From Batrachochytrium dendrobatidis JAM81 (lineage: Eukaryota; Chytridiomycota; Chytridiomycetes; Rhizophydiales): a DNA stretch of 64,000 nucleotides. The position numbers and the translations under genes were made by a program. The DNA is taken from contig NW_006281105.1 of assembly GCF_000203795.2 (NCBI RefSeq), positions 310,001 to 374,000 of the forward strand, in the 5' to 3' direction. This document shows, in pieces, positions 21,909 to 62,224 of this stretch (position 1 is the stretch's first letter; each line of letters opens with the position of its first letter). The notes under the pieces are model-generated. The model had not been told where the DNA came from. It worked only from the letters and a program-made list of their open reading frames with translations, and made no database searches.

Positions 21909-23900
21909 ACGCTGTTATTAGCGCATTTGGTCAGTTGCAGAGTCAAACCAATGACATTGTTGCCATGATGACCAAACACGACAATGTCATTTGATCATTA
22001 CTGGGACAGATCTTGGTCAAACTGGACTCTGGTTGCTCACCAACACATGCAGTTGTTATACCAGTTGCGGTATTCGAAACCATTTCCACGACTGTAAACA
22101 CCACCGCAACAGTGACTGTGTTTTGTCCACAAAGTCAATCCAAGTTGTTCATATGCGACAACAGCACGTTGCACACACACGCAGACTGTCGATACGGAAT
22201 GCCAAGCAACAATCAACTCATTCCGTAATCGTGCAATTGTTGACATAAATACCATTGCGGTCAATGCTGTATCGACTGGTGTCGAACCTTGAATGAATGC
22301 TGCAACTCGCATTTGTTTATTGCGTTTTGCATCGAATGCAATGTGCACACTCAATAAACTTTGTGGTATTCTGGTCACATTCTGTATCAATCTGCAACGG
22401 ATTACCAACATCCATACAATCAACAACACGATCAGATTATTAGTAAATCAATCTATTGCTGTCAAACTTGTAGTCATGACACAACTCGGTACAAATCAGG
22501 TCAAGTTTGATCCAGAAACTCCAACAAAAAACATCAACCCGACCACTGAGCTGGCTGCTCGTTGATGATTTGCTGGTTATGTGGGTTTACTGTTGATGGG
22601 TAAGCGTGTAAACTGTCGTACACGCAATTTATACTGCGAGTTGATGGTCAAGTCTGACAATCTGTATTCGCAAACTTGTGTGCAAGCAGTGTTTTGTTGG
22701 ATCTCAAACATCCTGCAACTCGCACAGTTGTTTGCACAGTTGTTCGTCTATCAATCCAACTGGATCTGCAACTCTGTCAAGCAAATCCGTAGTGCAACCT
22801 GCTGATGTTGATGTGACTACAATAAACACGAAACTCACCGAAATAACACTTGCTGATCTGACAGGTCAATGAGTGACACTCTAACCATTAATACCAAACA
22901 AACAACGTTTTGAATCAACAATCAACTGTCATGACAATGGGTAACATTCGTGGTCATTTGGCACCCATCTCAAACCATCACATCAAACACATTTCCAAAA
23001 TCGATTGCTGGACAACTCAACTCGGTGCACGAGTCCGCATTACTGTATCAGAGTTGTTAAACATTGGTAATGTGAAATATCATAAATAACGAGATATTTC
23101 AGAGACTCGTACACGACGCATATATGTTTGAGGAGATGTCTATCGCAGCCATCACTTGTGCAATAACAAGAGACTTTCTCAGCTATGACGTCTAATTCAC
23201 GGATACGCATAACCGTTATTTACATTCTTATAAAATGATCAATACTTTCTTTTATCAATAAACAACACAATTAACTCATTGGTTCATTCCTTCATTCTCA
23301 TCTTTTACTTCTGATATTCCTCCAAAACTATACTACATTAATATGTTGTCATACGTCCAAAAGCAACAGTATTGTTGTGGTGTAATATTAGCAACTACAC
23401 ACAACTTGACATGAATGACAATGTTGATGTCGAGGCTGACAATGTATTACAATGTATTGGTCAACAGTGACTGCAATCAATGACAATATTGCAGTCGATC
23501 CAACCCATGTGTTGATTGGAACAATCATTATCCACTTGTCAGATTCAGCATGTAAATGAATGTCTTGTAACACATTTACCAATCCAACAATTGACTGATT
23601 AACAATAATTGAATATTAAAATGTTGAGTAAGACTCGAGTCATTATATGAATGACGTAATCAATTGTTGAGTTGAATTGACACTTGATTGAACAATACAA
23701 ATAAACACATGACAAATGTTTAATTTGACAGTTTTAATTTCACACAAAAATGTTTAAACTATTCAAAGTGTGAATTTGTCTCACATTGTTCACGTGATAT
23801 CGAGTTTTGAATGTGAGACAAATTCACGTTTTGATCTTTTTTTGTCATTTCATTGTTCCACTTTATTCTATTACTCTATTCTATATTCTATTTCATTCTA
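21909..23900 (+). repeat. Direct duplication D, copy 1
   Basis: Matches 43,736-45,715 in the same orientation. The offset is a constant 21,826 bp from 21,909 to at least 23,827, so there is no net insertion or deletion across 1.9 kb; only scattered substitutions are seen. It carries a 5'-truncated copy of the coding sequence found at 43,736-44,631 (broken by several stops here), an orphan gene start at 23,343, and the CRN upstream element at 23,770-23,827. It ends just before the CRN header at 23,944. Confidence 0.85.
23770..23827 (+). promoter_or_regulatory. CRN upstream inverted-repeat element, copy 1
   Basis: Arms GTGAATTTGTCTCACATT (23,770-23,787) and AATGTGAGACAAATTCAC (23,810-23,827) are perfectly complementary over 18 bp around a 22-nt loop that contains CACGTGATATCGAG. 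It lies 117 bp before the header ATG at 23,944, followed by a CT-rich tract. Confidence 0.6.
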
Positions 23901-23943
23901 CTCTATTCCATTTCTTTTTACCATATCTCTTTTACAAACTCTG

Positions 23944-24132
23944 ATGGAGAACAAAGCATTCTTTGTTCAATATCTTACAAACCAACCTGTAAAGGTTGAT
24001 ACCCATATCAATAATGAAAGGACTGCTTTGCGGCCTTTTCCCCTTGATAATGTTGGTGACCCGGTTGGTGCTCGCAATGGGGTCCCAGGAATTATAGCTA
24101 GTCTCCACTCCATCCATCACATAATGGAGTGA
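23944..24132 (+). pseudogene. Crinkler header fragment, plus strand
   Basis: Starts with the M-E-N-K header codons typical of the CRN genes here and follows the header to about codon 41. It then runs through GTTGGTGACC into reverse-complement header sequence and stops at 24,130. No effector body follows. It is a truncated gene created at the junction of the palindrome. Header domains of this type are ubiquitin-like in the CR effector family. Confidence 0.7.
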
Positions 24133-24310
24133 GGTCTCCAACAAAAGCAAAAGCAAGAGGAGAGTTGGGAAGTGCTTGGAAAGCAGCAACCAGGTCAGCA
24201 ACAGTAAACAGGGTTTGAACCCAGACAAAAGTATTGGTGTTGAGAATATGAGTTCTCAAACCAACTGGCTGATTGTCAAGGTACTGAACAAAGAATGCTT
24301 TGTTCTCCAT
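24128..24310 (-). pseudogene. Crinkler header fragment, minus strand (frameshifted)
   Basis: Header starting at ATG 24310 (M-E-N-K-A-F-F) and continuing to VGDLT. There it lacks two bases relative to the intact header at 59,191-58,900 (CTCACTCCATTAT instead of CTCACTCTCCATTAT), so it shifts frame. The same two-base lesion is present in the CRN at 45,733. The frame collides with the opposing header fragment and no effector body follows. Confidence 0.7.
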
Positions 24311-24429
24311 CAGAGTTTGTAAAAGAAGAGATATGGTAAAAAGAAATGGAATAGAGTAGAATGAAATATAATATAGAATAGAGTAATAGAATGAAGTGAA
24401 ACAATGAAATGACAAGAAAAGATCAAAAC

Positions 24430-24487
24430 GTGAATTTGTCTCACATTCAAAACTCGATATCACGTGAACAATGTGAGACAAATTCAC
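24430..24487 (-). promoter_or_regulatory. CRN upstream inverted-repeat element, copy 2
   Basis: Mirror image of the element at 23,770-23,827 with the same two 18-bp arms. It lies 120 bp upstream of the minus-strand header ATG at 24310, again separated from it by a purine-rich (CT-rich on the sense strand) tract. Confidence 0.6.
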
Positions 24488-25757
24488 ACTTTGAATAGTG
24501 TTTAAGCAATTTTGTGTGAAATTAAAACTGTCAAATTAAACATTTGTCATGTGTTTATTTGTATTGTTCAATCAAGTGTCAATTCAACTCAACAATTGAT
24601 TACGTCATTCATATAATGACTCGAGTCTTACTCAACATTTTAATATTCAATTATTGTTAATCAGTCAATTGTTGGATTGGTAAATGTGTTACAAGACATT
24701 CATTTACATGCTGAATCTGACAAGTGGATAATGATTGTTCCAATCAACACATGGGTTGGATCGACTGCAATATTGTCATTGATTGCAGTCACTGTTGACC
24801 AATACATTGTAATACATTGACAGTCTCGATATCAACATTGTCATTCATGTCAAGTTGTGTGTAGTTGCTAATATTACACCACAGCAATACTATCAACTTT
24901 CGATTCCTGTGATACACCGTTTCAACCATGACTGGATCGAGGTTGATCACTTGTTAATACACGGGTCAGTTGTATAATCGTACAACTGTTGGTTAACCAA
25001 TGTTTGACTGTCGATATTTGAATCATGAATATTGTCCAACATAATCGTCACTAACATTGTCGTTTGATTGCCTTGTTTTATGAATAATCATTGCAATGTC
25101 ATTTGTTCAGTTGTTGTTGGTTTATTGAAACCATGTCACAATTCTTGATATATTGCACGTAATCTTGTAATTGTTGGTGTTGTCTGTAGTAATTCTGTCA
25201 ATGTATACGAATGTCACTTGTTGCTAATTGGTAGTTGTTTATGATTGATACACGACCGATCAGGTTTGGTGACCATTCTATGCACATATATATTTGACAT
25301 CATATCGGACTGTTATGTTGTTTGATCCAATAGTAGTATATGTCAGTCATACTATAATACTACATGTTTGTTGCAATATCCATACAACCTATATCCAAAA
25401 CTGCACAAACACTGTCATTCAAGATTGATGAGTATGCAATCACAAATGAATCCAACGCATTTTTGCTGTATATAGTTGTATCAAATGTCGTGTCTGTTGA
25501 CTTGACTGTTGGCTTGACTAGATCTGATATTACACGGGCTATTCAACAATTGTATTGAATTCCGGTTAGTATTGAGTCATTTGAGTCGTTCAAGTAGTCA
25601 AGTTGCTTGGTTTGCAATGTGTTGTGTCCAAGAATCACTTGCAATCAAACCATCACCAAACCACAAGTTAACAACACCAAATGATATATGACTGGTTATA
25701 TTAACACATTGCAAACACTCGACGAATTAGCCATGAATCAGGTTCAATCATCAATTT
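24487..25757. repeat. Direct duplication F, copy 1
   Basis: Matches 62,200-63,425 in the same orientation (offset about 37,670). The match ends abruptly at GGTTCAATCATCAA in both copies. Each copy lies on the upstream side of a minus-strand CRN header. A 64-codon frame (25,364-25,558) is open in both copies, but no family is recognised. Its left 400 bp is also the mirror of sequence in duplication D. Confidence 0.8.
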
Positions 25758-28893: not shown

Positions 28894-28949
28894 TGCAATT
28901 GTGAAAGAAAAGATACAAAAAAAGTGACTTGAATTCAAAATTTAATATT

Positions 28950-28971
28950 GTGAAGAATGAAACAAATTCAC
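28950..28971 (-). promoter_or_regulatory. CRN upstream element, half-site
   Basis: GTGAAGAATGAAACAAATTCAC retains the ATG-distal arm of the element (GTGAATTTGTTTCATT on the gene strand), followed by CACTTTGAAT as in the other copies; the second arm is absent. It lies 57 bp upstream of the start at 28893. Confidence 0.45.
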
Positions 28972-31482: not shown

Positions 31483-31550
31483 ACTGGATGTGTTTTTCCA
31501 GCATTTGCTTGACCCAATAAATGGTGCTGGGTTCCATCAAGATTACGGAT

Positions 31551-34289: not shown

Positions 34290-34742
34290 TGTGTTCAATA
34301 TACAACGATCATCATATGACACACAATCAGACTATAATGTTGAATCTACACTTTGTGCACTCTTAGTAATCATACATTGTACGATCACCAAGTTTGAACC
34401 CACATTCATGTATTGTGGTTGACTGTCAATATTGTCAATACAACTCTGCACATTTGTTGTGTTTATCACCATCCAACTCAATCTCACCATTTCAATCAAT
34501 CTTGGTCAATGTTGATGATTTACACGCTAATTCATTATCCAATCTTGTCTGACATTATTATTGGCTTTAATCACATTTGGTTTGTACAACTGCCATGAGT
34601 TGTACTACCATTATCATCGTGTATCTGAACACCAAACATTCCAATACATCAATAATACCACAGTGTAAACAGTAATACAGTTGATCAGTATTGTGGCAAG
34701 ACTTTTCATTCAAGTTTGTATTTGGAAATACTCGATACTGAG
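34290..34742. repeat. Third copy of the A/B flank
   Basis: Closely matches 48,885-49,315 (same orientation) and the complement of 18,010-18,365. It begins around ACACAATCAGACTATAATG and ends at the AATACTCGAT word. Beyond this point it continues with different sequence, so only the flank and not the DUF4246 gene was copied here. Confidence 0.8.
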
Positions 34743-39363: not shown

Positions 39364-40340
39364 CCCAACATGGAATTGTTTGATAGGCAGTATTGTAGTA
39401 GATCTGCTCGAGTGGGTTCAATGTTGTTTAGACATTGTGTTTTTAGATCATCAATCGACACACACAGCGCACCAACAAGACCATCACATTCCGTTACAAG
39501 AACATGTTTCAAGGTCTCATTGTTCATGTTGTTTGGCAACCCAATAACGAGTAAATCCAGAAATTCATGGAATTCATGGAATTCACAGAGTTTGGCTGGA
39601 ATAAGTAGAAAATCACTTTTCAAGACCTGAAAGACTACCGAGTTCAACAGGACTTGAAATTCCTCCAACAAAAAGATGGTTTGATGCAATGATAAATCGC
39701 ATGCTTAATGGCAACCAACTCAGCGATGCTTTGATTAAAAGTCTCCATAAACTTGTGTCTTGTAATTACTGTTGAGCATCATCAAGAAACAACAGTTTTA
39801 CTTTTTCCAATTCTATCCGTTGTTGTTTGGAACAATCAATGCATTCCCAACAAAAGTGTCGTGCAATCTTGTCCAAGAAACAAATCCAAATGACATTTGT
39901 TTGAGACTATGTTGATACATATTAATGAATATAGGTTTTGCAGAATCAGATGAACAAGTCAATATGACAAACCGATACTCAAACCAAGTATGTGAGTTTG
40001 TCAAGTTGAACAGGTCTTTTGAGATGATTTGTAGAAACATTGATACCATTGATCTGGATAGTTTTCTTGAAAGGATTGTATGAACCAGTGATTGTTGGGT
40101 TTGAGCCAACATCATTCTTGGATTTGATGATGAGTGGACTGGATCCAACAGTCCCGTTTGTTCCAAGTGCAGCAAGCGAGTCCCATGCGTTGTGATTGAT
40201 CTCGACTTGATCCACCAGAGTGGATATTCAGTTAGTGTATCGACCAAAAGTGATCCTGTTTTGTAATCTGCGACCAAGCCAACAGGTTCTATTGCTGAAC
40301 AACAGCCTGTTGTTGACTTGGTCGCAACCACCATCATTGA
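39339..40340 (-). pseudogene. Crinkler remnant, minus strand (in copy E1)
   Basis: Minus-strand frames encode CRN header sequence (NAWDSLAALGTNGTVGSSPL, then IIKSKND) followed, after frame changes, by body-like segments (WFEYRFVILTCSSDSAKPIF; LIPAKLCEFHEF). The parts lie in at least three frames, so the gene is dead. The initial M-E-N-K type start is missing. Confidence 0.6.
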
Positions 40341-40873
40341 GACAACTAAAAGGCTTGTTGGTATTCCAGTCGACCATCAACTTCTTACTTTCCACTTTGT
40401 TGTTGATGGAGTGGAAATAACTTGCAATTCATGGTATTGTCTTGCTGTTCTTGGACTATATTGAACCACTGGAACTGATCCACTCATCAAATCCAACACA
40501 TTATGCTTGGTCAAACTCTGTATCATCAACACTAGACACTGTAATGGACATGAACTCACTTTACAAACCACTCTTGTGAACCTTGTCCAGTCGATACACT
40601 TGTATGATGAACACAACTGTTGTGTGTCCAACATTCAATCAAAACCATTCATCTGGATCAAACCATCATGAACATCGACATCAAAGACATTGACACAATC
40701 CCTAATGTTTTGTATTCAAAAGTCTATTCTGGCAACATACAAATCAGCATCGAAATGCCAGTCGACAGACTGACAACTACACAATATTGTCATGATCGGT
40801 GTCAGTGGATGTGAACAACAACCTGCTATGGTTTGTGTCAACATTGTGTATTTGACTGTTTTATCGACCTGAT
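39364..40873 (+). repeat. Direct duplication E, copy 1
   Basis: Matches 53,970-55,479 at a constant offset of 14,606 bp from start to end, hence no net indel in 1.5 kb. Both copies begin at the word CCAACATGGAATTG and end at TTATCGACCTGA, after which the sequences are unrelated. It contains two back-to-back Crinkler remnants. Confidence 0.9.
40270..40325. repeat. Interrupted inverted repeat between two CRN headers
   Basis: GCGACCAAG (40,270-40,278) pairs with CTTGGTCGC (40,317-40,325), and AACAGG (40,281-40,286) pairs with CCTGTT (40,306-40,311), across a short loop. An identical copy lies at 54,876-54,931 in E2. It sits exactly where the two divergent headers meet. Confidence 0.55.
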
Positions 40874-44054: not shown

Positions 44055-45715
44055 TCGTGCAATTGTTGACATAAATGCCATTGCGGTCAATGCTGTATCG
44101 ACTGGTGTCGAACCTTGAATGAATGCTGCAACTCGCATTTGTTTATTGCGTTTTGCATCGAATGCAATGTGCACACTCAATAAACTTTGTGGTATTCTGG
44201 TCACATTCTGTATCAATCTGCAACGGATTACCAACATCCATACAATCAACAACACGATCAGATTATTAGTAAATCAATCTATTGCTGTCAAACTTGTAGT
44301 CATGACACAACTCGGTACAAATCAGGTCAAGTTTGATCCAGAAACTCCAACAAAAACCATCAACCCGACCACTGAACTGGCTGTTTGTTGACGGTTTGCT
44401 GGTTATGTGGGTTTATTGTTGATGGGTAAGCGTGTAAACTGTCGTACACGCAATTTATACTGCGAGTTGATGGTCAAGTCTGACAATCTGTATTCGCAAA
44501 CTTGTGTGCAAGCAGTGTTTTGTTGGATCTCAAACATCCTGCAACTCGCACAGTTGTTTGCACAGTTGCTCGTCTATCAATCCACCTGGATCTGCAACTC
44601 TGTCAAGCAAATCCGTAGTGCAACCTGCTGATGTTGATGTGACTACAATAAACACGAAACTCACCAAAATAATACTTGCTGATCTGACAGGTCAATGAGT
44701 GACACTCTAACCATTAATACCAACCAAACAGCGTTTTGAATCAACAATCAACTGTCATGACAATGGGTAACATTCGTGGTCATTTGGCACCCATCTCAAA
44801 CCATCACATCAAACACATTTCCAAAATCGATTGCTGGACAACTCAACTCGGTGCACGAGTCCGCATTACTGTATCAGAGTTGTTAAACATTGGTAATGTG
44901 AAATATCATAAATAACGAGATATTTCAGAGACTCGTACACGACGCATATATGTTTGAGGAGATGTCTATCGCAGCCATCACTTGTGCAATAACAAGAGAC
45001 TTTCTCAGCTATGACGTCTAATTCACGGATACGCATAACCGTTATCCACATTCTTATAAAATGATCAATACTTTCTTTTATCAATAAACAACACAATTAA
45101 CTCATTGGTTCATTCCTTCATTCTCATCTTTTACTTCTGATATTCCTCCAAAACTATACTACATTAATATGTTGTCATACGTCCAAAAGCAACAGTATTG
45201 TTGTGGTGTAATATTAGCAACTACACACAACTTGACATGAATGACAATGTTGATGTCGAGGCTGACAATGTATTACAATGTATTGGTCAACAGTGACTGC
45301 AATCAATGACAATATTGCAGTCGATCCAATCCATGTGTTGATTGGAACAATCATTATCCACTTGTCAGATTCAGCATGTAAATGAATGTTTTGTAACATA
45401 TTTACTAATCCAACAATTGACTGATTAACAATAATTGAATATTAAAATGTTGAGTAAGACTCGAGTCATTATATGAATGACGTAATCAATTGTTGAGTTG
45501 AATTGACACTCGATTGAACAATACAAATAATCACATGACAAATGTTTAATTTGACAGTTTTAATTTCACACAAAAATGTTTAAACTATTCAAAGTGTGAA
45601 TTTGTCTCACATTGTTCACGTGATATCGAGTTTTGAATGTGAGACAAATTCACGTTTTGATCTTTTCTTGTCATTTCATTGTTTCACTTCATTCTATTCT
45701 ATATTCTATTCCTTT
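43736..45715 (+). repeat. Direct duplication D, copy 2
   Basis: Partner of 21,909-23,900 (see there). This copy retains the 5' extension of the coding region (41,941-43,735), which D1 lacks, so D1 is the truncated derivative. It also carries an orphan gene start at 45,169 preceded by TTATAAAATG and a CT-rich leader. Confidence 0.85.
45596..45653 (+). promoter_or_regulatory. CRN upstream inverted-repeat element, copy 3
   Basis: Same perfect 18-bp arms and 22-nt loop as at 23,770-23,827. It is 80 bp upstream of the Crinkler start at 45,733, separated from it by a pyrimidine-rich leader (TTCATTCTATTCTATATTC). Confidence 0.65.
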
Positions 45716-45732
45716 CCTTCATAAACTCCAAA

Positions 45733-48148
45733 ATGACCAGGCTTTATATTCAATACCTTGAAAACACTCCGGTATCATTATTTACTCAAAAGTTGCCTGT
45801 CCCTGAAGGAGAAGAGCCTAATATTTCTGACCTGGTTGCTGCTTTCCAAGCACTTCCCAACTCTCCTCTTGCTTTTGCTTTTGTTGGAGACCTCACTCCA
45901 TTATGTGATGGATGGAGTGGAAATGACTTACAACTCCTGGGAACCCATTACTGTTCTCAAAACAAACGGAACTGTTGGTTCTAACCCACTCATTATCAAG
46001 TCAAAGAGTGATGTGGAGAGTGGTGTGAATGTTGTAAAGTTTTCCAATCCAAACCAAATTCCCATGACTGCCACTGGTCTCTTGGAATGGCTTTCTGGGT
46101 CGAATAATAGTTCTACAGTTGATTTGCCTGATAAACAAATTCTATCTCAGCAGCAAACCAATCCCAATCAAAAAGTTGTATTTCCGCTGGCTGGTCGAGA
46201 GAAATCGCTCCAACACATTGCATCATGCTTTATGGCCACCCATCGACACCGCAGCAATATTGATCGGAATTCAAGACATATTCCTGTTTGTACTGGTATA
46301 CCGGGATTGGGAAAAACTCGACTTATGACAGAGTGCTCTACCACAGTTTTAGACATGACAAAGATCCAAGGCAAACGACTTTCGGCAATTGTTTCTTTTG
46401 GAAATGACGGGAGTGCCTATGGCGAGATTGACAAACTCCTTGGAATCAAATGTTCATTTGCCTGGAGATTGCTCCATTCGCTTTTCAAGGCGCAATACAA
46501 GCTCGATGTTTGGATGCGTGAAAAGTCACCAAAGAACAGAAGCGAGCTCACAATGACATTAGTTTTATCGACCATTGAACTTTATTGGAGTCGGGAAACT
46601 CAAGACGACATACTTTTATTTGTCGGAGTCGACGAGTATCAAAAACTCTGTCAAGATGAACTGAGTTCTCTGCTGGATATCTTGTGTGATTCTTCTCATT
46701 GTTCTACAACGTCAAAGCTTACATTTTTCTGTATGCTGGCGGGAACTGACCTGAACATGACTCGTATTGCTCGATCATCACACCCTAATACTAAGAGAAC
46801 GCCGATCCGGTTTCTAACTCACATGGAATCAATGGAAGCTATTGGTCCTTTTATTTCGGATACACATTGTGGATTCGTGGTCAGTGAAGCCTTTGCTCGA
46901 AATGTCTTTTATCTAGGCGGAGTGCCAAGACTACTGACTGAGTTTGCAGAAGAAGTTGTATCCATGAAACTGGCTGATCTAACCGAACACAATTTTCAGG
47001 AGGCAAGAATGACTGCGCTTTCAAATTTGCAATATCCTCAATTGTCACTCGCTGATATTTTGAAGCTACTGGCGACTTCTTTTACAAACACGCCTGTTGC
47101 AAATATACTAAACTGTCCGTTTTCTGAATCATCGCTATCTTCTGCAAGAGACCTTACTTGGAGTCAAATGGTTTCAAACGGGATGTGTCAGCTTCAAAAT
47201 AATGGTCGAGTGATTATACCGTTCCATATTGTTACTCAGGCTTTGGAGAGGTCATTGAATGAAAGGGTCAGTCTAAACCAATTTGAAGCGGCACTCCTAT
47301 CATCGTTGAATGGTTTGTCGCTTGACGTTGAATATCCATTTTCCAACATGACTCGTTGGTCATCATGGGAGTATTTTGGTGCTAGTTTCTACTGTATCAG
47401 AATCAACTCGTTTCTTGTATTGGGAATATCGATACTTTCTTTGTCTGATATACTGCATGGATCGCAGTTTAACCCAGGTATTTTCAATACTCAAGTTCAC
47501 ATCAGAATCGCCAAAGTTTTTCGATCAAACGAGCAATATGGACCTGATATGCCACGAATAATCACTCGGAAAGACAACAGCTATTATTCCGTTGACTGGG
47601 TTGACAGCGAGACATTGCAAATTGTAATCAATGGTGAGGATGGACCAGGAGTGGATATATACTTTATTCTGAAATGCGCAGAACAAGACTCTGGCTATAT
47701 CATAGTTTTGGATCAACGAAAACGACTTGGTTCTAATATTACAAACTCGGATCTGACCACTTTCCGATCAAAATTACCGAACCCGCCAGCATTTTTAAAC
47801 GGGCTCAAATTGGACTCTGTTTTTGGTCTGATGAGCGTATATTCACAGATTAACATTAGCCCTGTTCCAGATTCAACGTATTTTGTTTCTGCATCAAATT
47901 CTCCAGGTTTTCATGGTTCACTCTATGATCATCCAGGTTGTTCTGTGGCCATTGATGCTAATTCTGCATTGAAAACATCGATTAAACAGATATTCTGCGG
48001 TACCAATCATGAGCAAACGAATTTGGCAAACAAGGTCATTGAACAGCGCTACAACAAACGCATTGCAAACTATGATGAGCTTGAATCATTGGTGTCAGAA
48101 TGGGGTGGAAAGTTGAACGAGTCGGCTCGTGCAAGAATCAAGTTTTAA
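45733..48148 (+). CDS. Crinkler effector with P-loop NTPase body; header frameshifted
   Basis: The header starts at ATG 45,733 (MTRLYIQYLENTPVSLF) and follows the CR header to VGDLT, where two bases are missing relative to the intact header at 56,894-59,191. The remaining ~750 codons are open in the other frame to 48,148. In that frame an ATG at 45,758 opens a 796-codon frame whose first 45 codons overprint the header and include eight consecutive leucines. The body has Walker A GIPGLGKT (near 46,295), a Walker B-like ILLFVGVDEYQK and FYLGGVPRLL. The last ~300 residues have no recognised fold. Since the body carries no other lesion, the gene is either freshly broken, translated from 45,758, or read by frameshifting. 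CR effectors act in host cells; here this is inferred from the family. Confidence 0.75.
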
Positions 48149-48884: not shown

Positions 48885-51800
48885 CCATCATATAACACAC
48901 AATCAGACTATAATGTTGAATCTACATTTTGTGTACTCTTAGTAATCATACATTGTACGATCACCAAATTTGAACCCACATTCATGTATTGTGTTTGACT
49001 GTCAATATTGTCAATACAACTCTGCACACATTTGTTGTGTTCATCACCATCCAACCCAATCTCACCATTTCAATCAATCTTGGTCAATGTTGATGATTTA
49101 CACGCTAATTCATTATCCAATCTTGTCTGACATTATTATTGGCTTTAATCACATTTGGTCTGTACAACTGCCATGAGTTGTACTACCATTATCATTGTGT
49201 ATCTGAACACCAAACATTCCAATACATCAATAATACCACAGTGTAAACAGTAATACAGTTGATCAGTCTTGTGGCAAGACTTTTCATTCAAGTTTGTATT
49301 TGAAAATACTCGATGGTTTAATCACAACACATTGTAATGCGATTGTCATTGATCTCATCTCATTCCAGTCCAGTCCATCTGATTTATGATGATGTTTAGT
49401 AATCCATTACCATGTGTTGTAGTAAACTAACTTGTTTATTGAACCAAATCTACAACGATCACATTCAGAATATTAATTTACAGTATTTCTAAATGCATGT
49501 TTGATAACAATCCAATTTTGTTACAAAAAACTGATCAAAACAATACTAAAATGGAACAACTCGTTTGTGTGTTTTACAACAATCCAAACATAAACAATTC
49601 TTGGCAATTGTTGAACATTCGCATGAATGAAATTGTCAAATCAAAATTCAACTTTACTAATTTTATCAAACATGAAGTTGGATGATATCATGAAAGAGTT
49701 TATCAAACACCTGGAAGATTTGGAACTGTTAACAACGGATGCTCAACTATACAAGGCTGATGAAATATGGGACAGACTGCTTGACTTGATACTGGAGTTG
49801 AAACAACAGAATCGCAGTAAGTTTAGTAGCAATTGTATTATTGATGAATTCAAACTGTTGCTGACTTTGTGTTGGTTTGAAATGGCAGAGTCTACAGATG
49901 TAATGCATCGTTTACAGAGTATTGAACTGCAAGATATCATAACCAAGTATTTGGAGTATAATCGACCCAGTTTACAGGTATTCATATATTGTAACAATAA
50001 TGGATTGTTGTTCATGACTAAAATAACCAACATGTGTTGTGCAGATCAAAGTAATGGAATTTACTACAGTGTTTTTGGGTATTTTATACAGTAATAATGA
50101 GTTCAAAATATCTCAACGACTAAGCAACCAACTCTCACAACTCATGCAATCACCAAACCGTCAAGTCAAAATAGCGACAAGTCATGATTGATATTGATCA
50201 AATGATTGACATTCAACTCACACAGTGTCAATATGCATATAGGCGATAAAAACATGTACAGAGTTTTACAAATATAAACGCTGGAGTCAAGAGTATAAAT
50301 TTGACATCAAGCCAATGGTTGAGATTATTGTTCACGAGTCCAATCAAGAAGTGCTCACATTGGCGATTAACCTGTTTTTGAAAGTTTGCAGTGATATTGA
50401 CGATGGAAATGTATGTTTACAGTGATACAATATTGGATCAGTTTGGACAGTGTCTTGTCATGTCATGTTGATCTGATTGTATACTTGACATTGAACAATA
50501 TCATTAGTTTGGCATCGTGCTATCAATACTTGTCTCACGACTGGAATCATCCAATGGTCTAGTTGCTGTTGGTTTTATCGAAAATCTTAAAACCATGTAT
50601 CTGAATATTCATCGTCATGACCGAGTAAAAGCAGCGGGATGTGGCATCATTCCAGCACTGGTCAATACGTTCAGGTATGTGGTGTTATGCATGAATGTGT
50701 GTCCAGTCATCACAATTGGTAAATTTGACATGGTTGGATTGACATGACATGAATACAGGAGTGTCGATCAAGAAGTGATTGATCAAAGTATTGAAATTAT
50801 CCATAATTTTTGCAACTATGTAAATTGTGAAGTGATTTCAGCCGAGTTTATAAGATCAGGTTTGATTCAAACGTTGAACGACTTGTATATCAGATACAGC
50901 GATAATTCTAGACTAAAAACACGCATGATCAAGATAGCTGGATCAGTTGCATCCAAAATGCGCGACTTTCCTGTATCGCTTGTACGATCGTTGGTTTTTG
51001 AGCAATTGACGATATCAGTGTGTGATCTCCGCATGGGTTACTCTTTGCGCATGTTTAATGATCTCAACGACATGATTGAGAAATCTACAAACAAGGCCGA
51101 GATAATCAAGGTGTTTCAAGAATATGGAATTGTGAAGCAACTCAACACCATTTATTCACGTACAGATATACGTTTGTGTGATTCTGGTGGTAGTACTGTA
51201 AAACTACTCGAAACACTTGCTGATTTTGCCGACAATCATCCCGACAGTTCAATACGTACCGAGTTGGATCAAGGCAGGATACTTGAAAATCTAACGGCTA
51301 TTGTACAATCAGACACTGCTAACCACAGAGACAAAATGGTTGCTGGCCAGATCATTGAAGCGTGTTTCCAGCATCGGGTTTACACTGCTAGTTCGAGCAT
51401 TCAATCATACAACGACAATGCCGAAATTGATATGAAATCTGGAATGGCCGGAGATACACATGGAGAGGTACGCACACTTGTCGAGATGCGGTATATCCAA
51501 TATCTTCATTCTATACTTTGCAAACCCATGTGGTGGATCGATATCACAAACCAGCATATTGTGGAGCAATGGAGGGTTGACTCACTCGATCGGAATATAT
51601 CACCATCAACATTTAATCTTGCGTTGGAACAACTCGGGTTTTTTGTCAAACAGCTTGTTTGTAGTGGCAGTGATGGATTTGGCACAATTGTACCAGGACC
51701 TGTTGAACTGACGTATATACTGGACAATGGCATACCTGACAATGTATACACGCGATTGATGACAAATGTATCGGATATTGAACATGGATCAAATCACAAC

Positions 51801-53483
51801 ACTGGTCAAATGGTGCAAATCTGATTGATGCATCAATGTACAGTGTTGTATATGGACAAACGATGATTGCACCACTGAGTATACGACTCGAATACACCAC
51901 AATGATACCATGCGATATATTGTTATCGACTCGACTTGTTTCAGATATGCCCATCATTGAAGGTGATTCCGAGTTTATATCATGCAAGTTCCAATGTCTT
52001 CCGAGTGAATTCCGTGTCGAACAGGATGGCAGTGTGACCATCAACTCATACATCAACAATCTGAATCCGATATGGCATCGAGACATGTACAAATGCATTG
52101 CCAAAATATTCAAATGTTTTGTCCCAATGTTTGAAAGTCTGATCAGAACGATGGATCCAGTGTTCAAGTATATTGATATTGGCAATGGCACAAAGGGATA
52201 TGAATCACCAAGTCAGTCAGATCATGATGATATGGAACCAGACACTCAAGTCATTCGTCCCGTGTATGTACCAACACTTCCGGAACATTTTGAATCCAAA
52301 TATGAATCGGCAAAACCAGTATCACTGCGTGGTCGTAATCTGCAAGTCATTGTCAAACTCACCAACATTCAACTGACACCATCCAAACCTAAATACGACG
52401 AGGGAAACTGGCACATTGAAGGTCCAATTAACGAATCGATTGTTGCAACTGGACTGTATTACTACGACGTGGAAAATATCACCACACCCAAACTCGATTT
52501 CCGTGTGGCTGTTGATCGTTTTTATCAAGGAGCATCTGATATGTATTGGAAAGATGTGTATGGCATTGATCTAGAATCACCGCATAATCAGTATATAGGA
52601 TCGCTTGAAGTATCAAATGGTCGATGTGTAGTTTATCCCAATCGATACCAACACAAAGAACAATCATTTGAACTTGCAGATCCAACTCAACCAGGACATT
52701 GCAAAGTTCTGACATTTTTTGTAGTGGATCCAGCATGTCGGATTGTTTCGACTGCGCATGTGGCTCCACAACAACCACAATGGTACAACTCGAGTCTTGA
52801 CAAGACACCCATACTGCCTGAACTGTGGAATGATGCCACGCAGTATATTCAAGGTGTTCAATCACCAGCTGAAGCCAAACACTATCGAGATGAATTGACA
52901 AGTGACCGAACTCGAATCACAGCAGCATACAACACATACAGATATGAACAGGCGTATAGTGATTGGTGATTGATTGTGAGGTTGTGATTTTACAACAACA
53001 AGTTGCAATGCCAGTCAGATCTATGCAATTAAATGTATCGAATCAATCATGTCAATCTTGACAATGATTGTTGATTATATTGACTGATTGTGTACAATTG
53101 ATTGATACAAGTGATATGGATGCATCATTCGGTGTTGTTGAATCAGATCATTGCTTGATTCTGTCAATGTGATCAAATGGATTACTACAAAACTGTGCAT
53201 GCTCAAGTTGAATCAAGTATTGAATCGAGTATTGGATTGATATTTACACACAACCACAATTACAACCACAATTGCAATCAGCACAGTCTGAATATTAGAC
53301 ATTTGAACATCACATATCGAGTTGTGGATAAATGCGAGTTGGCATATTGGACTGTTTTTGTAGTTTATTAATGATTTGATTCACGACTGTTTGAATTCAA
53401 GGCTCAATATGGATTACAACTGGATTGTCGTTGTTTCCATTTGGAATGACAAATCTGTCAATGTGTTGATTGGTTGCTAGTCC
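48885..53483. repeat. Inverted duplication, copy B
   Basis: Inverted partner of 13,809-18,365; its first 430 bp also match 34,290-34,742. It ends at GGTTGCTAGTCC near 53,483. The two copies face outward from a 30.5-kb interval that contains most of the CRN loci. Confidence 0.85.
49672..52969 (+). pseudogene. ARM-like + DUF4246 protein, copy B (one-base frameshift)
   Basis: Exons 49672-49977, 50045-50180, 50262-50410, 50508-50674 and 50759-52969 join in phase. The total coding length is 2,969 bases, one short of a multiple of three, matching a single-base deletion at about 51,815 (GTGCAAATC where copy A has GTGCACAATC). With that base the protein would be about 989 residues. The N-terminal ~480 residues are helical and armadillo-like (AAGCGIIPALVNTF; IIHNFCNYVNCEVISAEFIR). 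The C-terminal part is DUF4246 with FQCLPSEFRVEQDGSVTINS, WHIEGPINESIVATGLYYYD and FELADPTQPGHCKVLTFFVV. Unlike copy A, the N-terminal exons contain no nonsense codons. The deletion falls inside the DUF4246 region, so the separate frames (50,775-51,824 and 51,836-52,969) are both long. Confidence 0.8.
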
Positions 53484-53893
53484 ATTGTCCAAATAAGAAT
53501 CAATTCCACCAGCAATAGTGTCCGTCACATTCGAGTTGTTGGGAAATACTTTTGATAGTTTTGGTTAGATTGAACAGTCTGGTTTAGTCAAGTAAACCAA
53601 TATCTCCATAAACATGTGCTGTGAAGTTGTTTCATTTGGAAAACCGCATGACGAAACAGATTCCAATACATTGGTCGATATTGATGAGACAACATTGCGT
53701 ATGAGTTTTTGAAGAGACAAATGTTGTGATGGAAAGCAGTTTGTGAATGTCCATTTGAATAGTATTTTTTGACCAACAGCAAAGTAAAAGCAAGTTCAAG
53801 GTCGAACGACTTCATCAATATTCCAGCCTTTTGAGTGATGAATAAGATTCCATATTTTGCTGGGTTTCCAAGTTGTCCAATCGATGATTTTTG

Positions 53894-56893: not shown

Positions 56894-59191
56894 TTAAATA
56901 ATAAGCTTGCCATTGATCTCAAAGAAAATAACAACTCCATCCATATCAGGCTGGTCGCACGGAAGACCCTCGATTGGTTCAAGCAAAGTCTTGGGCTTTG
57001 AAGCGTCAATCTTGTAGTAAGCCTTTTTCAGAACATGGCTTCTTTGGAATTGAACTTCAAACGATGGAGCTGGAGGATTAAAGTACGAATCTTGAAGTTT
57101 TCGTGTAAAAACTAGTTCCACCTTTGCTGCTTTAGGAATCCTACCAATGATATTCACCATTGTTTCAAGGCTGATTACACCTTTGTGATCTTTGGATTCT
57201 CCAAAAAGTCCACAGGAAGTCTTCAAATCAATACCTTCCGAGTTTCGAGTTCTTGATAACCAATCAAAGTTTGAACCAGGTATTTGAACAAAATCGGGCC
57301 ACTTTTGGTTTGGCGGTGAAAGAAAAGGTACAGTAAATGTTATACCATCGAGCCTGTTCAGATCGAGTATAGAGACGTCTTCGGAATCAGGTTTATCAAT
57401 CTGAAGCTGGTATACCAAATTCAACAGAAACGGTTTTAGACCAATTCCCTTGACGCCATTAGAATGTGAAGCCAAACAGACTGTCGAACATAGCAAAGAC
57501 TCGAGAAACATTCCATCATTGCTATCCTGTACAGCATTCGAAAAGTATAGAATATGGCTGCGATAATCCGGATTACTCTTGGCTTTCATCAAAAAATGTG
57601 CATATGGCACCTGCTTGTTATCCCCTGTATAACAGGCGGAAAATCCCTTTCCACCCATCAACAGCAGGTAAAGCAAAATGTCGCTCTTTAGCTCTGGAAA
57701 CACCGAAGACGGTCTCCAAGAAGCAGAATGGTTTTGAATACATCCATTGTTCATCAATATAAAGTTTTTTTCTCCATCTAGCTGGGCAAAGTGTGAGTGA
57801 ATCAATGGAGTCGATTGGTTTTTCAGATTGGTCGATTGGCTTTCCAAATCGGTCAGTTGACAGTGAGCGTTATGAAGCAGCCGAACCTGTCCAAGTTGTC
57901 CGTAAAGATTTCCAAATATCTTTTTGACTGATTTCAGTTTAATAAACGCTGCTTTCATCAATTCGTCAAAATCTGAAGCATTGTTTGCGATTTCTTCTGC
58001 GACAAACTGCGCAAAAAGTGGCCTTGAGTTGAGTATGATAGATTTGAGATATCTTGGTAGTGTTTGTGGCAATCCTGTTAGTTCTAGTTTTACTGCTGGA
58101 AATTCCCCAAACACATGGCACCACGGTCTTGGAATCTCACTTCGACTGCCATTGTCAGTGGTGGGTTGCAGTTTGGCTGCTCTGGAATCTGTTCCCATCA
58201 TAACGAGTCCCAGACCCAATGAGCGGAAGCAATTTCGCACAAATCGCACTTTTTTTAAGGACTGGTCTGAAATAGCAATACACTCGTCCAGAATAAACAC
58301 TGGTCTGCATTCATTGATTCCTTTGGAAGTCATCAGCTCTTGAACATCTTTGCCAGTCTTTGGACCAATACTGACTGTGGGTGGTTGAATTCTGTTGGAT
58401 AGCAATTCAAAAATAAATCCATACATGTATAGACTTTTTTGAAATAACGAACCACAGCTTGGAGATAAATCCTCAGTGCTGCACATGTGCTCATCTTCTA
58501 CACAACACTTGCTGAACAACTTTGAAGTGTTTCGAAAGTTGCGGTAGATTCTTTGTGATGTTGGACCGGGAGGATCGAACAGGAAATAATGCACTTTCCT
58601 CTCACTACCGATATTGGCTTTGATATTAAAGCCCATCTGACTCTTTCCTGAACCAGACGAGCCCTTGAGAAATACAAATGGTAAATTTTTGAAGCTTGAC
58701 TCGGAAAATTCTCCAGCTGTAATCGAAAGGAGAACATCTACGATTTGCACGACACAGTTGTCGTTTTTTAAAGAATCGGCAATATGGCAATACTCTGAAA
58801 GTGATGGATTTATAGTTTCTTCAGATGTTCCCGAAACCAGTCTGATATTCGCATTCATTGACGCTCCTGATACTGCACTAGCGACGCCTTGCCTGGTACT
58901 ATTGTTGGCCTTGATAATGAGTGGACTGGAGCCAACAGTCCCATTTGTTCCGAGAGCAGAAATGGGGTCCCAGGAGTTGTAGTTGGTCTCCACCCCATTC
59001 ACCACATAATGGAGAGTGAGCTCGTCAACAAAGGTAGAAGCAAGAGGAGAGTTGGGAAGTGCTTGGAAAGCAACAACCAGGTCACCAACGTCAGTCAGTG
59101 GCCTTCTTCTCTCCAATTCTCCATTGAAGTGGGTTTCGATTTTCACTGGCTGGTTGTGGAGGTATTGAATGTAGAATGCTTTATTTTCCAT
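56894..59191 (-). CDS. Crinkler effector with P-loop NTPase body, intact, 765 residues
   Basis: Single-exon gene from ATG 59191 (M-E-N-K-A-F-Y). Header residues 1-95: FNGELERRRPLTDVGDLVVA, DELTLHYVVNGVE, ending SSPLIIKANN. It then has a variable linker and a P-loop body: Walker A GSSGSGKS at 177-184, Walker B-like RPVFILDECI at about 296-305, and a sensor-like LGLVMMGTDSRAAKL at about 325-340. The body differs in family from the GxPGIGK type seen in the CRNs at 19,729 and 27,208, and has a longer spacing between Walker A and B. The last ~250 residues (FTVPFLSPPNQKW; VELVFTRKLQDSYF) may form the effector tip, but I recognise no fold. No signal peptide is evident. The header keeps the CTCACTCTCCATTAT sequence that is two bases shorter in the CRNs at 45,733 and 24,310. 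Confidence 0.85.
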   Translation of the reverse strand: MENKAFYIQYLHNQPVKIETHFNGELERRRPLTDVGDLVVAFQALPNSPLASTFVDELTLHYVVNGVETNYNSWDPISALGTNGTVGSSPLIIKANNSTRQGVASAVSGASMNANIRLVSGTSEETINPSLSEYCHIADSLKNDNCVVQIVDVLLSITAGEFSESSFKNLPFVFLKGSSGSGKSQMGFNIKANIGSERKVHYFLFDPPGPTSQRIYRNFRNTSKLFSKCCVEDEHMCSTEDLSPSCGSLFQKSLYMYGFIFELLSNRIQPPTVSIGPKTGKDVQELMTSKGINECRPVFILDECIAISDQSLKKVRFVRNCFRSLGLGLVMMGTDSRAAKLQPTTDNGSRSEIPRPWCHVFGEFPAVKLELTGLPQTLPRYLKSIILNSRPLFAQFVAEEIANNASDFDELMKAAFIKLKSVKKIFGNLYGQLGQVRLLHNAHCQLTDLESQSTNLKNQSTPLIHSHFAQLDGEKNFILMNNGCIQNHSASWRPSSVFPELKSDILLYLLLMGGKGFSACYTGDNKQVPYAHFLMKAKSNPDYRSHILYFSNAVQDSNDGMFLESLLCSTVCLASHSNGVKGIGLKPFLLNLVYQLQIDKPDSEDVSILDLNRLDGITFTVPFLSPPNQKWPDFVQIPGSNFDWLSRTRNSEGIDLKTSCGLFGESKDHKGVISLETMVNIIGRIPKAAKVELVFTRKLQDSYFNPPAPSFEVQFQRSHVLKKAYYKIDASKPKTLLEPIEGLPCDQPDMDGVVIFFEINGKLII

Positions 59192-59308
59192 TAGAGTTTA
59201 CTGAAGAGAATTGAAGGAATTGAGTAAAAGAAAGAGCAAAAGGAAATGTAATAGAATGGAATGAAGTGAAGTGAAGAAAAAAAAGAAAAAAAAATTCGAC
59301 TTTAAATC

Positions 59309-59348
59309 CAAAACTCGATATCATGTGAACAATGTGAAACAAATTCAC
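59309..59348 (-). promoter_or_regulatory. CRN upstream element, half-site
   Basis: CAAAACTCGATATCATGTGAAC plus AATGTGAAACAAATTCAC: the loop and the ATG-distal arm of the element are kept with one substitution, while the ATG-proximal arm is lost. It lies 118 bp upstream of the start at 59191. Confidence 0.5.
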
Positions 59349-59364
59349 ACTTTGAATAGTGTTT

Positions 59365-60371: not shown

Positions 60372-62072
60372 TTATTTAATCTCTGCTTTACCAAAATCAA
60401 TCAATTTGATATCCCCATCATGAGTTAAAAGCACATTTTCTGGTCTCAAGTCCTGATGAACCACGCCAACCGATTTCAAGTCTCGAATAACACGATTCAA
60501 CTTTTTCTTCAATTCACTGTTTGCTCTCCAATCACAATGGTTTCCGGGAATATAGTCCAACGCAATGAAATGTTGCCCATAATATTCGCACTGTCCATAA
60601 TAACGAGGAATATACTTTAGATTGAGTGGGGAAAGCTTTTCGTAAATTGATATTTCGTTCTTCAGCATTTTGAATCCTTCAGGATTGTTATAAGAATCAC
60701 ATTGCTTCACAACAATGTTGCTGTCCTTGAGTCGAATGACTTGACCAGTTGCTCCAGATCCAACCACGGTACCGTAATGAAGAGAATCGAGATTAAGGTT
60801 ATATTTTGTTCCTTTGCTCTTGTCCAAACTATAATTTGTTTCTTTTCCCTGGCCTGCGGTTGAATAGTTACTGCCTGATTCTGATTGTTCATCCGCATTA
60901 TGTTCATCAGTATCCATTTCATTGCTGGCGTTAAGTTCCACAGGCATATCAGAGTCCTTTGGATTGGGATCTAGCGTTTGTTTTTTATAGTCTCGTAAAG
61001 CAAGCTGAACAAAGTAATATAGTGCTTGAAGAAGACTAGGCGAATGAGAATTATTGAAAATGGGATGGCTGATAAGAAGAGTGCTTCTCTTGGGTCGCCA
61101 AAGAAAATATGTAACATCATAACAAGTTACACACCCATAGATCAGATTGTTCAATGAGAGATATCCGTAAACTTGATCAATCACTGTGCACACATCCATA
61201 CGTCCAATGTCCTCACGGGTTATTTTGCTTTGTTGGTATTGTATATCTTCTTTATACATCTCCAGCAAATCAAATGGGTTTCCGCTTGCAAAATGACGAG
61301 CCGGCAAATCATTTGGAGTCTTTTCTTCAATAAATGACAACACTTTGGAACCAAGAGTGAGAACGTTATCTGGAACTCCAATAAACTTGATAGACTTTTC
61401 TGTTTGAGTTGGTGTTCCAGAGTTTAAAGGGATAGCAGTGGGTTTGGTTTGGAATCTGTGCGTCTTTCCTTGGTCTTGAAATATTCTGTTGAAGTTATCC
61501 AAATGGTTTCCAACAGCCCTGCTGACATCTCTTTCCAGTGTGAATGCAACTCTCCTTGTAACAGGCAAAACAACATCACTCCCAACATGAGTAGCAGGAT
61601 ATTCATATGCTTTTGCATCTGTTGAAAAGCTTTCCCACCGTCCAACATGCGAAGGTGTTTTAGGATAGTTTCTTTTGATTTCAGTAGTAGATGACTCTGA
61701 AAGATTTTTTTCAATATTTGCCAAAGTGTTTGATAAAAATTTATCGAGTCTTACTGTAAGATGATTGACAAGACTTTGGCCAGAATCACCTTTTGATTTG
61801 ATTATCAGTGGATGGTCGTAAGAACCAAAAGAATTTTGAATGGAGGTCAGGAGCACATCCACAGCAATGGCTGGACCATCCACCACATAATGGAGAGTGA
61901 GCTCGTTGACAGGAATAGCACCAAGGAGGGTAGTGGTGACAGTCTTGTAAGCTGCAATCAGTTTTGAGACATTGTCAAGCGGTCTTTTTCTCTCTAGTTC
62001 TCCATTGAAGTGGGTTTCGATTTTCACTGGTTGGCTGTGGAGGTATTGAATGTAGAATACTTTATTTTCCAT
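60372..62072 (-). CDS. Crinkler effector with REase-like region and C-terminal protein kinase
   Basis: Single-exon gene, 566 residues from ATG 62072 (M-E-N-K-V-F); the frame upstream has no ATG. The header is residues 1-95 (FNGELERKRPLDNVSKLIAA; VNELTLHYVVDGPAIA; HPLIIKSKGD). Residues ~120-360 resemble the restriction-endonuclease-like region that precedes kinases in fungal CR effectors (IDQVYGYLSLNNLIYGCVTC, then YDVTYFLWR). An acidic Ser/Asn-rich linker follows. The kinase is at about 434-566: glycine loop GSGATGQV, lysine in NIVVKQCD (~456), catalytic loop VVHQDLRPENVL (His ~539) and LIDFGKAE (DFG ~559-561). It ends five codons after DFG, so there is no activation segment, APE motif or C-lobe helices. 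The combination matches the REase-kinase class described for CR effectors; the activity here is inferred. Confidence 0.85.
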   Translation of the reverse strand: MENKVFYIQYLHSQPVKIETHFNGELERKRPLDNVSKLIAAYKTVTTTLLGAIPVNELTLHYVVDGPAIAVDVLLTSIQNSFGSYDHPLIIKSKGDSGQSLVNHLTVRLDKFLSNTLANIEKNLSESSTTEIKRNYPKTPSHVGRWESFSTDAKAYEYPATHVGSDVVLPVTRRVAFTLERDVSRAVGNHLDNFNRIFQDQGKTHRFQTKPTAIPLNSGTPTQTEKSIKFIGVPDNVLTLGSKVLSFIEEKTPNDLPARHFASGNPFDLLEMYKEDIQYQQSKITREDIGRMDVCTVIDQVYGYLSLNNLIYGCVTCYDVTYFLWRPKRSTLLISHPIFNNSHSPSLLQALYYFVQLALRDYKKQTLDPNPKDSDMPVELNASNEMDTDEHNADEQSESGSNYSTAGQGKETNYSLDKSKGTKYNLNLDSLHYGTVVGSGATGQVIRLKDSNIVVKQCDSYNNPEGFKMLKNEISIYEKLSPLNLKYIPRYYGQCEYYGQHFIALDYIPGNHCDWRANSELKKKLNRVIRDLKSVGVVHQDLRPENVLLTHDGDIKLIDFGKAEIK

Positions 62073-62184
62073 TAGAGTTTGTTTAAATAGAAAGGAATAG
62101 AGTAGAAGAAAGAGCAAAAGAAAATGGAATAGAATGAAGTGAAGTGAAGTGAAGAAAAAAAGAAAAAAAATTGGACTTTAAATC

Positions 62185-62224
62185 CAAAACTCGATATCAT
62201 GTGAAGAATATGAAACAAATTCAC
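62185..62224 (-). promoter_or_regulatory. CRN upstream element, half-site
   Basis: Same arrangement as at 59,309-59,348 (CAAAACTCGATATCATGTGAAG followed by AATATGAAACAAATTCAC), with two further substitutions. It lies 113 bp upstream of the start at 62072 and is likewise preceded on the sense strand by ATTCAAAGTGTG. Confidence 0.5.

What the first reader, a model, noticed from the sequence alone, without database searches (positions are those of the whole stretch)
23770..62224. A shared inverted-repeat control element upstream of Crinkler genes
Perfect 18-bp arms (GTGAATTTGTCTCACATT / AATGTGAGACAAATTCAC) flank a 22-nt CACGTGATATCGAG-bearing loop at 23,770-23,827, 24,430-24,487 and 45,596-45,653. 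Half-sites occur at 28,950, 59,309 and 62,185, 57-120 bp from a CRN ATG and on the same strand each time. A related TGAGACATT cluster lies upstream of the RHS-type gene (21,582-21,669). The same position and orientation before bodies of unrelated families suggests one regulator for the effector set, or a transcribed hairpin in the 5' leader.
Basis: seen in the sequence. Interest (0 to 1): 0.8.

Follow-up and report, generated by a model that had tools for sequence, protein, structure and literature searches.

The report
Shared promoter box of Crinkler genes
In what is very probably the frog-killing chytrid fungus, a short DNA sequence sits at nearly the same place in front of most genes of two large families of suspected effector proteins and rarely elsewhere in the genome, so it is probably the switch by which one regulator controls the whole set.

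Summary
The arm word GTGAATTTGTCTCAC occurs exactly 55 times; all 55 lie just upstream of a Crinkler (CRN) header of the 'MENK/YIQYL' class (53, two read). A distal arm with at most 3 mismatches is in 68 of 73 such upstream regions read. The full palindrome is not general: 26 of 73 have the inverted second arm, and the spacer varies, so a transcribed hairpin is not the shared feature. The core TGTCTCACATT (171 copies, reversed control 6) also marks the other CRN class, MPKR[YF]LNVEY: 93 of 100 listed AATGTCTCACATT sites lie 165-257 bp before such a start, all in one orientation. The two N-termini are not detectably homologous by sequence. Best reading: a proximal-promoter box bound by one DNA-binding protein that co-regulates both classes; binding and regulation are inferred. 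No report of it was found in the searches made. Two of the window's three full sites precede bodiless header fragments in a large inverted repeat.

The parts
23770..23827 (+). Full palindromic (P-type) element: distal arm 23770-23787, 22-nt loop, proximal arm 23810-23827
   Evidence: exact 18-bp arms
23944..24102 (+). MENK-type CRN header fragment served by the 23770 element; short open frame, no body follows
   Evidence: (C31:333944-334102, open frame 124 aa)
24430..24487 (-). Full palindromic (P-type) element, mirror copy of the one at 23770
24128..24310 (-). MENK-type CRN header fragment served by the 24430 element; faces the fragment at 23944, no body
   Evidence: (C31:334128-334310, open frame 145 aa)
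23368..24891 (.). Large inverted repeat (arms 23368-23980 and 24273-24891, 97% identical) made of two facing promoter-plus-header pieces
45596..45653 (+). Full palindromic (P-type) element
45733..46003 (+). MTR-type header (MENK class) behind the 45596 element, matched in two overlapping frames (45739-45897 and 45881-46003): header start and body (ORF 45908-48148) are not in one open frame in this copy
28957..28971 (-). Distal arm only, 2 mismatches; 63 bp from the ATG at 28893 of the CRN ORF 28893-27208
59334..59348 (-). Distal arm only, 1 mismatch (N-type promoter); 142 bp from the ATG at 59191 of the CRN ORF 59191-56894
62210..62224 (-). Distal arm only, 2 mismatches (N-type promoter); 137 bp from the ATG at 62072 of the kinase-bodied CRN ORF 62072-60372
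21656..21682 (-). Composite box TTAAACTATTCAGAAATGTCTCACATT of the MPKR-type CRN promoter (first core site 21656-21668)
21593..21605 (-). Second core site AATGTCTCACATT, 63 bp from the first and 170 bp from the ATG
21217..21423 (-). MPKR-type CRN header of a copy whose reading frame is interrupted downstream

Best explanation
The element is a proximal-promoter box of the Crinkler genes of this chytrid. Its core, TGTYTCAC(ATT), read in the gene's direction in the distal arm, is most likely the binding site of a sequence-specific DNA-binding protein that co-regulates the set. In the MENK/YIQYL class there is one distal site, within about 165 bp before the header start, inside a conserved block (TATTCAAAGTGTGAATTTGTYTCACATT) and followed by a pyrimidine-rich stretch up to the ATG. 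In the MPKR class two copies, mostly 63 bp apart, lie about 170 and 233 bp before the ATG, the far one directly behind TTAAACTATTCA, which some MENK promoters also carry. The varying spacer (13-28 nt between 15-mers) suggests that the two arms are separate sites rather than one rigid dimer site. Shown: position, orientation, near-exclusivity, conservation, presence in both classes. Inferred: the protein, its binding and the effect on transcription.
For: All 55 exact 15-mer sites lie beside a MENK-class header start (53 of 55, 37-163 bp away, some starts extrapolated from the protein match; the two at C12:1198000 and 1198043 lie beside a start at C12:1198155 that my list lacked); 33 of 34 one-mismatch sites too. 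Reversed-pattern control: 0 for the 18-mer. 68 of 73 upstream regions keep the distal arm with at most 3 mismatches; none of 65 has a second distal-type site within 1 kb. With about 13.8 effective sequences, the ten most informative 15-column windows of the aligned 230 bp upstream plus 45 bp of header all lie over the distal arm and the block just before it (about 1.6 against a median of 1.08 bits per column). In the 156 pairs whose sequence 150-500 bp further upstream is below 0.50 identity (shuffled control mean 0.48, sd 0.13), arm identity is still 0.93. Core 11-mer: 171 copies against 6 in the control; of 100 listed rows 62 are at MPKR starts (all in gene direction), 22 at MENK starts (12 in gene direction, 10 as the inverted second arm), 16 at neither. 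AATGTCTCACATT: 108 against 0; of 100 listed, 93 lie 165-257 bp before an MPKR start, 93 of 93 in one orientation, covering 48 of 53 headers. Composite 27-mer: 55 against 0, 49 exact, at 50 of 53 MPKR headers, exact also at headers only 47-64% identical in protein to the query. The two N-termini are not detectably homologous, so a common header does not explain the shared core. Published expression is compatible: CRN genes as a group rise in frog skin and 13 of 16 are higher in zoospores (PMC3502224, passages).
Against: No binding, expression or transcription-start data were available. Many copies are recent duplicates; the effective number of independent MENK promoters is about 14, and the fixed 169/232-bp spacing in the MPKR class may partly reflect recent copying or gene conversion. 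Many MPKR copies have only short open frames (81-119 aa), so the box also stands before probably dead genes. Whole-promoter local alignment of the one MPKR promoter read (the window's) with the 73 MENK promoters does not beat shuffles (0 of 73 above the highest control), so the kinship of the two promoters rests on short words. The arm-identity test is biased upward because sites were chosen with at most 3 mismatches. TTAAACTATTCA is less specific: of 89 exact copies 49 are at MPKR and 10 at MENK starts, 30 at neither. Five of 55 composite sites have no header hit nearby, and the two places that I read (L098, L099) showed none. Seven of 100 listed core 11-mers are unexplained. Five of 73 MENK upstream regions lack a recognisable distal arm. 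One published data set reports 92% of Bd CRNs lower in advanced infection (PMC5364385, passages), so the direction of regulation depends on stage.
Confidence: 0.7

Rival explanations
1. Hitch-hiking: the box is simply part of a promoter that was duplicated together with the CRN header. It is an ordinary core promoter of the family with no dedicated regulator, and looks conserved because the copies are young or homogenised by gene conversion.
For: The window's copies share up to 1975 bp at 98%; only about 14 effective promoters; recombination among copies is evident.
Against: The arm stays at 0.93 identity where sequence 150-500 bp upstream is at shuffled level; promoter type and header reassort: C31:155904 (N) and C6:619951 (P) have headers 0.98, 0.97 and 0.98 identical in three segments but different promoter types, and 9 type changes, at least 8 forced by well-supported branches, are needed on a quick header tree of 64 rows (P against all others, and a tree of mosaic sequences, so a weak number); the core is shared with the MPKR class.
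Confidence: 0.17
2. Transcribed hairpin in the 5' leader that controls translation or stability of the mRNA.
For: In the three P-type copies of the window the RNA would form a 25-bp stem, -33.6 kcal/mol, z -6.57; some elements end about 40-50 bp before the ATG.
Against: 47 of 73 upstream regions are not P-type; the three half-site copies fold like shuffles; the arms hardly vary, so there is no covariation to support RNA pairing (seen, not formally counted); the pyrimidine-rich stretch between element and ATG (mean 79%, n = 53) looks like a start region downstream of the element (inference); no Rfam match.
Confidence: 0.05
3. The palindrome is a mobile or recombination element (miniature transposon end, foldback element, or break site for shuffling promoter and header cassettes).
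For: Facing promoter-plus-header palindromes exist (C12, arms at least 699 bp, 100%; window, 619 bp, 97%; C4, 984-column self-match, 83%); headers are mosaics; promoter types P and N occur with near-identical headers.
Against: All 55 exact sites sit at header starts, so it does not insert elsewhere; the single distal arm, not the palindrome, is what is kept.
Confidence: 0.08

Closest known systems
Effector-associated promoter motifs of plant-parasitic nematodes (DOG box, STATAWAARS)
   Same: A short motif upstream of effector genes that predicts effectors and goes with expression in the effector-producing tissue (PMC6062891, abstract and outline read; DOG box papers seen in the search listing only).
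   Different: Here it is a fungus; the motif is longer and close to exclusive, may be doubled as an inverted or tandem pair, and marks two CRN classes; nothing is yet tied to stage or tissue.
The two N-terminal CRN classes of B. dendrobatidis (MPKR[YF]LNVEY and ME?[TN]..FYI / YI[QK]YL)
   Same: These are the genes that carry the box; motifs as given in PMC5364385 (passages read).
   Different: That paper defines the classes by protein; the words promoter and upstream do not occur in the held main text. The shared DNA box is an addition.
Stage-specific promoter motifs and CRN recombination in Phytophthora
   Same: Motifs tied to spore and infection stages are known there (PMC3597505, search listing only); CRN header/body and fragment recombination, and near-identical 0.2-kb upstream stretches in duplicates (PMC3726527, passages).
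   Different: No sequence relation was tested or is claimed; there the upstream identity was described for duplicates, here the box outlasts the divergence of its flanks.

Membership tests
Effector-associated promoter motif | Strong enrichment upstream of effector genes against the rest of the genome | tested here: met
   55 of 55 exact and 33 of 34 one-mismatch 15-mer sites; 84 of 100 listed core 11-mers at CRN headers
Effector-associated promoter motif | Fixed orientation and proximity to the start | tested here: met
   Distal arm in gene direction 37-163 bp away; 93 of 93 MPKR sites in one orientation
Effector-associated promoter motif | Motif carriers share stage- or tissue-specific expression | not testable with these tools
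   No transcript data at hand; group-level reports only
Effector-associated promoter motif | A protein binds the motif | not testable with these tools
   No binding data
Structured RNA leader | Stem kept across the family | tested here: not met
   26 of 73 have both arms; the three half-site copies folded give shuffle-level energies
Structured RNA leader | Match to a described RNA family | tested here: not met
   0 gathering-level matches in window 20000-63000
MITE or other transposon end | Copies scattered independently of the genes | tested here: not met
   All 55 exact 15-mer sites at header starts
MITE or other transposon end | Target-site duplications | not tested
   No insertion boundaries defined
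CRN genes (carriers of the box) | N-terminal motif of one of the two published Bd CRN classes | tested here: met
   Compared by eye: window headers MENKxFYI.. and MPKRFLNVEY against the motifs quoted; relatives by header search
CRN genes (carriers of the box) | Pfam Crinkler domain PF20147 | tested here: not met
   Not hit in 6 window ORFs scanned, 3 of which begin with the header; PMC12204190 reports the same failure for Bd (passages)

The most novel reading that the evidence does not exclude
Batrachochytrium CRN genes form a combinatorial cassette system under one dedicated switch: an interchangeable promoter module (palindromic or single-site, with the same core) joined to an N-terminal domain built from about four exchangeable segments and to a diverse body. 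Header-only copies, including the facing promoter-plus-header palindromes, would serve as donors of segments, or as sources of double-stranded RNA that tune the whole family.
Probability: 0.2. Interest if true: 0.85.

Novelty: new member of a known kind. Interest (0 to 1): 0.62.

Why it matters
In one comparison the CRN set shows the highest expansion among the putative pathogenicity families of Bd relative to its saprophytic relatives (PMC12204190, passages), and I met no account of what switches it on. A nearly private 11-nt core makes that directly testable: fish for the protein that binds it, predict unannotated members, and ask whether the two CRN classes are one regulon. No report of such a box turned up in these library searches: Batrachochytrium with Crinkler and promoter, with Crinkler, upstream and motif, with crinkler, expression and zoospores (15 of 21 listed), with promoter motif, with cis-regulatory and transcription factor binding, with CRN, mosaic and recombination. 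I saw listings, and scanned the main texts of five Bd papers for crinkler, CRN, promoter and upstream: no CRN promoter is described in the passages shown. Subscription papers and supplements were not visible.

Tried and rejected
RNA hairpin as the common function: rejected. Rigid dimer across both arms: unlikely, since the distance between 15-mers is 13, 17, 19, 20, 22 or 28 nt. Remote homology of the two headers as the cause of the shared core: not detected by BLASTP or by profile comparison of 11 MENK-class headers with one MPKR header (probability 3.6). Whole-promoter homology between the classes: not above shuffles, low-complexity stretches dominate. Relatives in viral contigs: none. No tool gave DNA of other chytrids, so the test across species is open. 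The C at arm position 11 is kept in 26 of 26 P-type and 19 of 42 other arms (Fisher p = 6.5e-7, not corrected for relatedness); I do not lean on it.

Rows dropped or limited: of the hits (128; 84) I used those whose match begins in the first 8 header residues, plus C12:1712504 (residue 30), 83 starts in all; C7:520174 and the internal fragments were left out. Five weak hits of one repeated 96-aa frame (C10:205679, C27:1178107, C33:208140, C4:168059, C5:355504) were then excluded because, by eye, their upstream DNA is unrelated. Of the remaining 78 header starts 73 were read; of the five unread, three have a one-mismatch site by coordinates (C21:1018712, C21:1030091, C27:148688) and two have none listed (C27:129242, C27:312740). 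Of 54 MPKR hits 53 were used, one internal fragment dropped. Searches list 100 rows of 127, 108 and 171; proportions refer to the listed rows. Of the MPKR class only the window's promoter was read as sequence. One search used 60 loci, 64 rows, 64 rows of which 42 were fully classified by segment types that I defined after looking at the sequences, ten chosen headers.
Full report
WHAT IS IN THE WINDOW. The three palindromes are exact and stand at the stated places: 18-bp perfect arms around a 22-nt loop that contains CACGTGATATCGAG. The half-sites (28957, 59334, 62210) keep the distal arm with 1-2 mismatches but not the gene-proximal arm; the two at 59334 and 62210 keep the loop nearly unchanged. 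Twelve matches with up to three mismatches compare with 4.69 expected. The window's full sites are not independent: 23770 and 24430 are mirror copies inside a 619-bp inverted repeat, and 45596 shares 1975 bp at 98% with the 23770 side. The first two precede header fragments that face each other and have no body. Behind 45596 the header is matched in two overlapping frames, so header start and body are not in one open frame in this copy. The bodies do differ: a protein kinase passes Pfam's cut-off at 60372-62072, while nSTAND3, AAA_22 and NPHP3_N matches of three others stay below it.

WHICH GENOME. The window is contig C31:310001-374000 of a 23.49-Mb genome in 33 contigs. Its contig lengths 1838334, 562684, 1484462 and 1082576 are those listed for proteins of Batrachochytrium dendrobatidis JAM81, so it is very probably that genome (inference).

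The 18-bp arm has 45 exact copies, its reversed control none. The 15-mer has 127 copies with up to two mismatches against 44 in the control; 100 are listed. Of the listed rows, 53 of 55 exact and 33 of 34 one-mismatch sites lie 37-163 bp before a MENK-class header start (some starts extrapolated from the protein match), but only 2 of 11 two-mismatch sites do. The two exact exceptions, C12:1198000 and 1198043, lie before a header start at C12:1198155 that the protein search had not listed. So all 55 exact sites are at CRN headers, and background appears mainly at two mismatches.

HOW GENERAL IS THE PALINDROME. Of 73 upstream regions read, 68 have the distal arm with at most three mismatches; 26 have the inverted second arm (P), 37 have another proximal sequence around GGATTTAAAGTC (N), 10 neither. 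In P the distance between the 15-mers is 13, 17, 19, 20, 22 or 28 nt. The distal arm is thus the conserved unit and the palindrome a variant. In an alignment with about 13.8 effective sequences, the ten most informative 15-column windows all lie over TATTCAAAGTGTGAATTTGTCTCACA, ahead of every window in the first 45 bases of the header. Pairs whose sequence 150-500 bp beyond the arm is below 0.50 identity (shuffled control 0.48) still match at 0.93 in the arm, 0.70 in the 60 bp before it and 0.69 in the 45 bp after it (sites had been chosen with at most three mismatches).

A SECOND CRN CLASS HAS THE SAME CORE. The cluster at 21582-21669 contains AATGTCTCACATT in gene direction. That 13-mer has 108 exact copies, control none. 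Of 100 listed, 93 lie 165-257 bp before an MPKR-type header, all 93 in one orientation, mostly as pairs 63 bp apart; 48 of 53 headers have one. The longer box TTAAACTATTCARAAATGTCTCACATT has 55 copies, 49 exact, control none; 50 of these stand at 50 of the 53 MPKR headers, with exact copies also at headers only 47-64% identical to the query. Five have no header hit nearby; at two of these I read the expected start and found none. The 11-mer TGTCTCACATT has 171 copies against 6 in the control. Of 100 listed, 62 are at MPKR and 22 at MENK starts; 16 are elsewhere. Of the 16, five belong to header-less MPKR boxes, four lie at two places where the stretch read on one side looks, by eye, like MENK-type upstream sequence, and seven are unexplained. 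Both classes also share TTAAACTATTCA: 89 exact copies, control 0, of which 49 are at MPKR and 10 at MENK starts and 30 at neither. The headers are not detectably homologous, and the window's MPKR promoter does not align with MENK promoters better than shuffles; the common part is short words in the same order and orientation.

MECHANISM. The likeliest reading is a binding site for one protein that co-regulates both CRN classes. AATGT-CTC-ACATT is itself a near-dyad, so a dimer on each core is plausible, and the doubled sites (inverted in P, tandem in MPKR) would raise occupancy; both points are inference. The stretch from element to ATG is 79% pyrimidine on average (n = 53), as expected of a fungal start region (general knowledge), which would put the box upstream of the transcript. 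A leader hairpin would be strong where it exists (-33.6 kcal/mol, z -6.57) but most genes lack it. Published data fit co-regulation without proving it: CRN genes as a group rise on frog skin and 13 of 16 are higher in zoospores (PMC3502224, passages); CRN expression rises when zoospores are incubated two hours with host tissue, and 92% of Bd CRNs are lower in vivo in advanced infection (PMC5364385, passages).

IS IT HITCH-HIKING? Partly, since many copies are young. But promoter type and header are exchanged: C31:155904 (N) and C6:619951 (P) have headers 0.98, 0.97 and 0.98 identical in three segments. The header itself is a mosaic: 21 four-segment combinations in 42 classified headers, and all 10 combinations of the last two segment types occur; for example C12:1193264 and C12:1201082 are 0.99 identical in segment 1-2 but 0.65 and 0.63 in segments 3 and 4. 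Through this shuffling the core box is the constant.

NOVELTY. Effector-associated promoter motifs are a known kind (nematode DOG box and STATAWAARS). The two N-terminal classes are known. I found no account of a shared CRN promoter box in Bd in the searches and texts named. I rate it a new member of a known kind, of fair interest because it is nearly exclusive, spans two N-terminal classes not detectably related and makes their regulation directly testable.

Noticed in passing
MENK-class headers genome-wide, e.g. L060 (C12:1193264), L062 (C12:1201082), L077 (C31:155904): The CRN N-terminal domain looks like a mosaic of about four exchangeable segments: 21 combinations among 42 classified headers, with DNA identity jumping from 0.99 to 0.65 within one header pair.
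   Followed up: partly
L061 (C12:1197519-1199155); window 23368-24891; C4:80870-81819 (L040/L041): Long palindromes of two facing CRN promoter-plus-header pieces without bodies: arms at least 699 bp at 100%, 619 bp at 97%, and a 984-column self-match at 83%. Whether they are donors, dsRNA sources or debris is open; the 100% one could be an assembly artefact.
   Followed up: partly
Window 40120-40491 (element at 45596); similar pairs 5-6 kb upstream of elements on C1, C4, C9, C10, C11, C15, C21, C33 and of C31:156014: Pairs of CRN header fragments in divergent orientation recur 5-6 kb upstream of ten elements, nine of them P-type, by the coordinates, as if a larger block had been copied with the gene. 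Other such pairs (for example C31:364726, C31:146553, C12:1798476, C32:1229267) do not fit that distance.
   Followed up: no
L060 1149-1526 and L062 1157-1522: A 114-116-bp tandem array (3.2 copies) of the upstream part of the CRN promoter before two CRN genes; in L062, which was read, the outer copies lack the TGTYTCAC core.
   Followed up: no
Window 13801-18375 and 48939-53487: A 4.6-kb inverted duplication at 92%, one copy of which carries a DUF4246 gene (the other was not scanned), with a further partial copy at 34302-34736.
   Followed up: no
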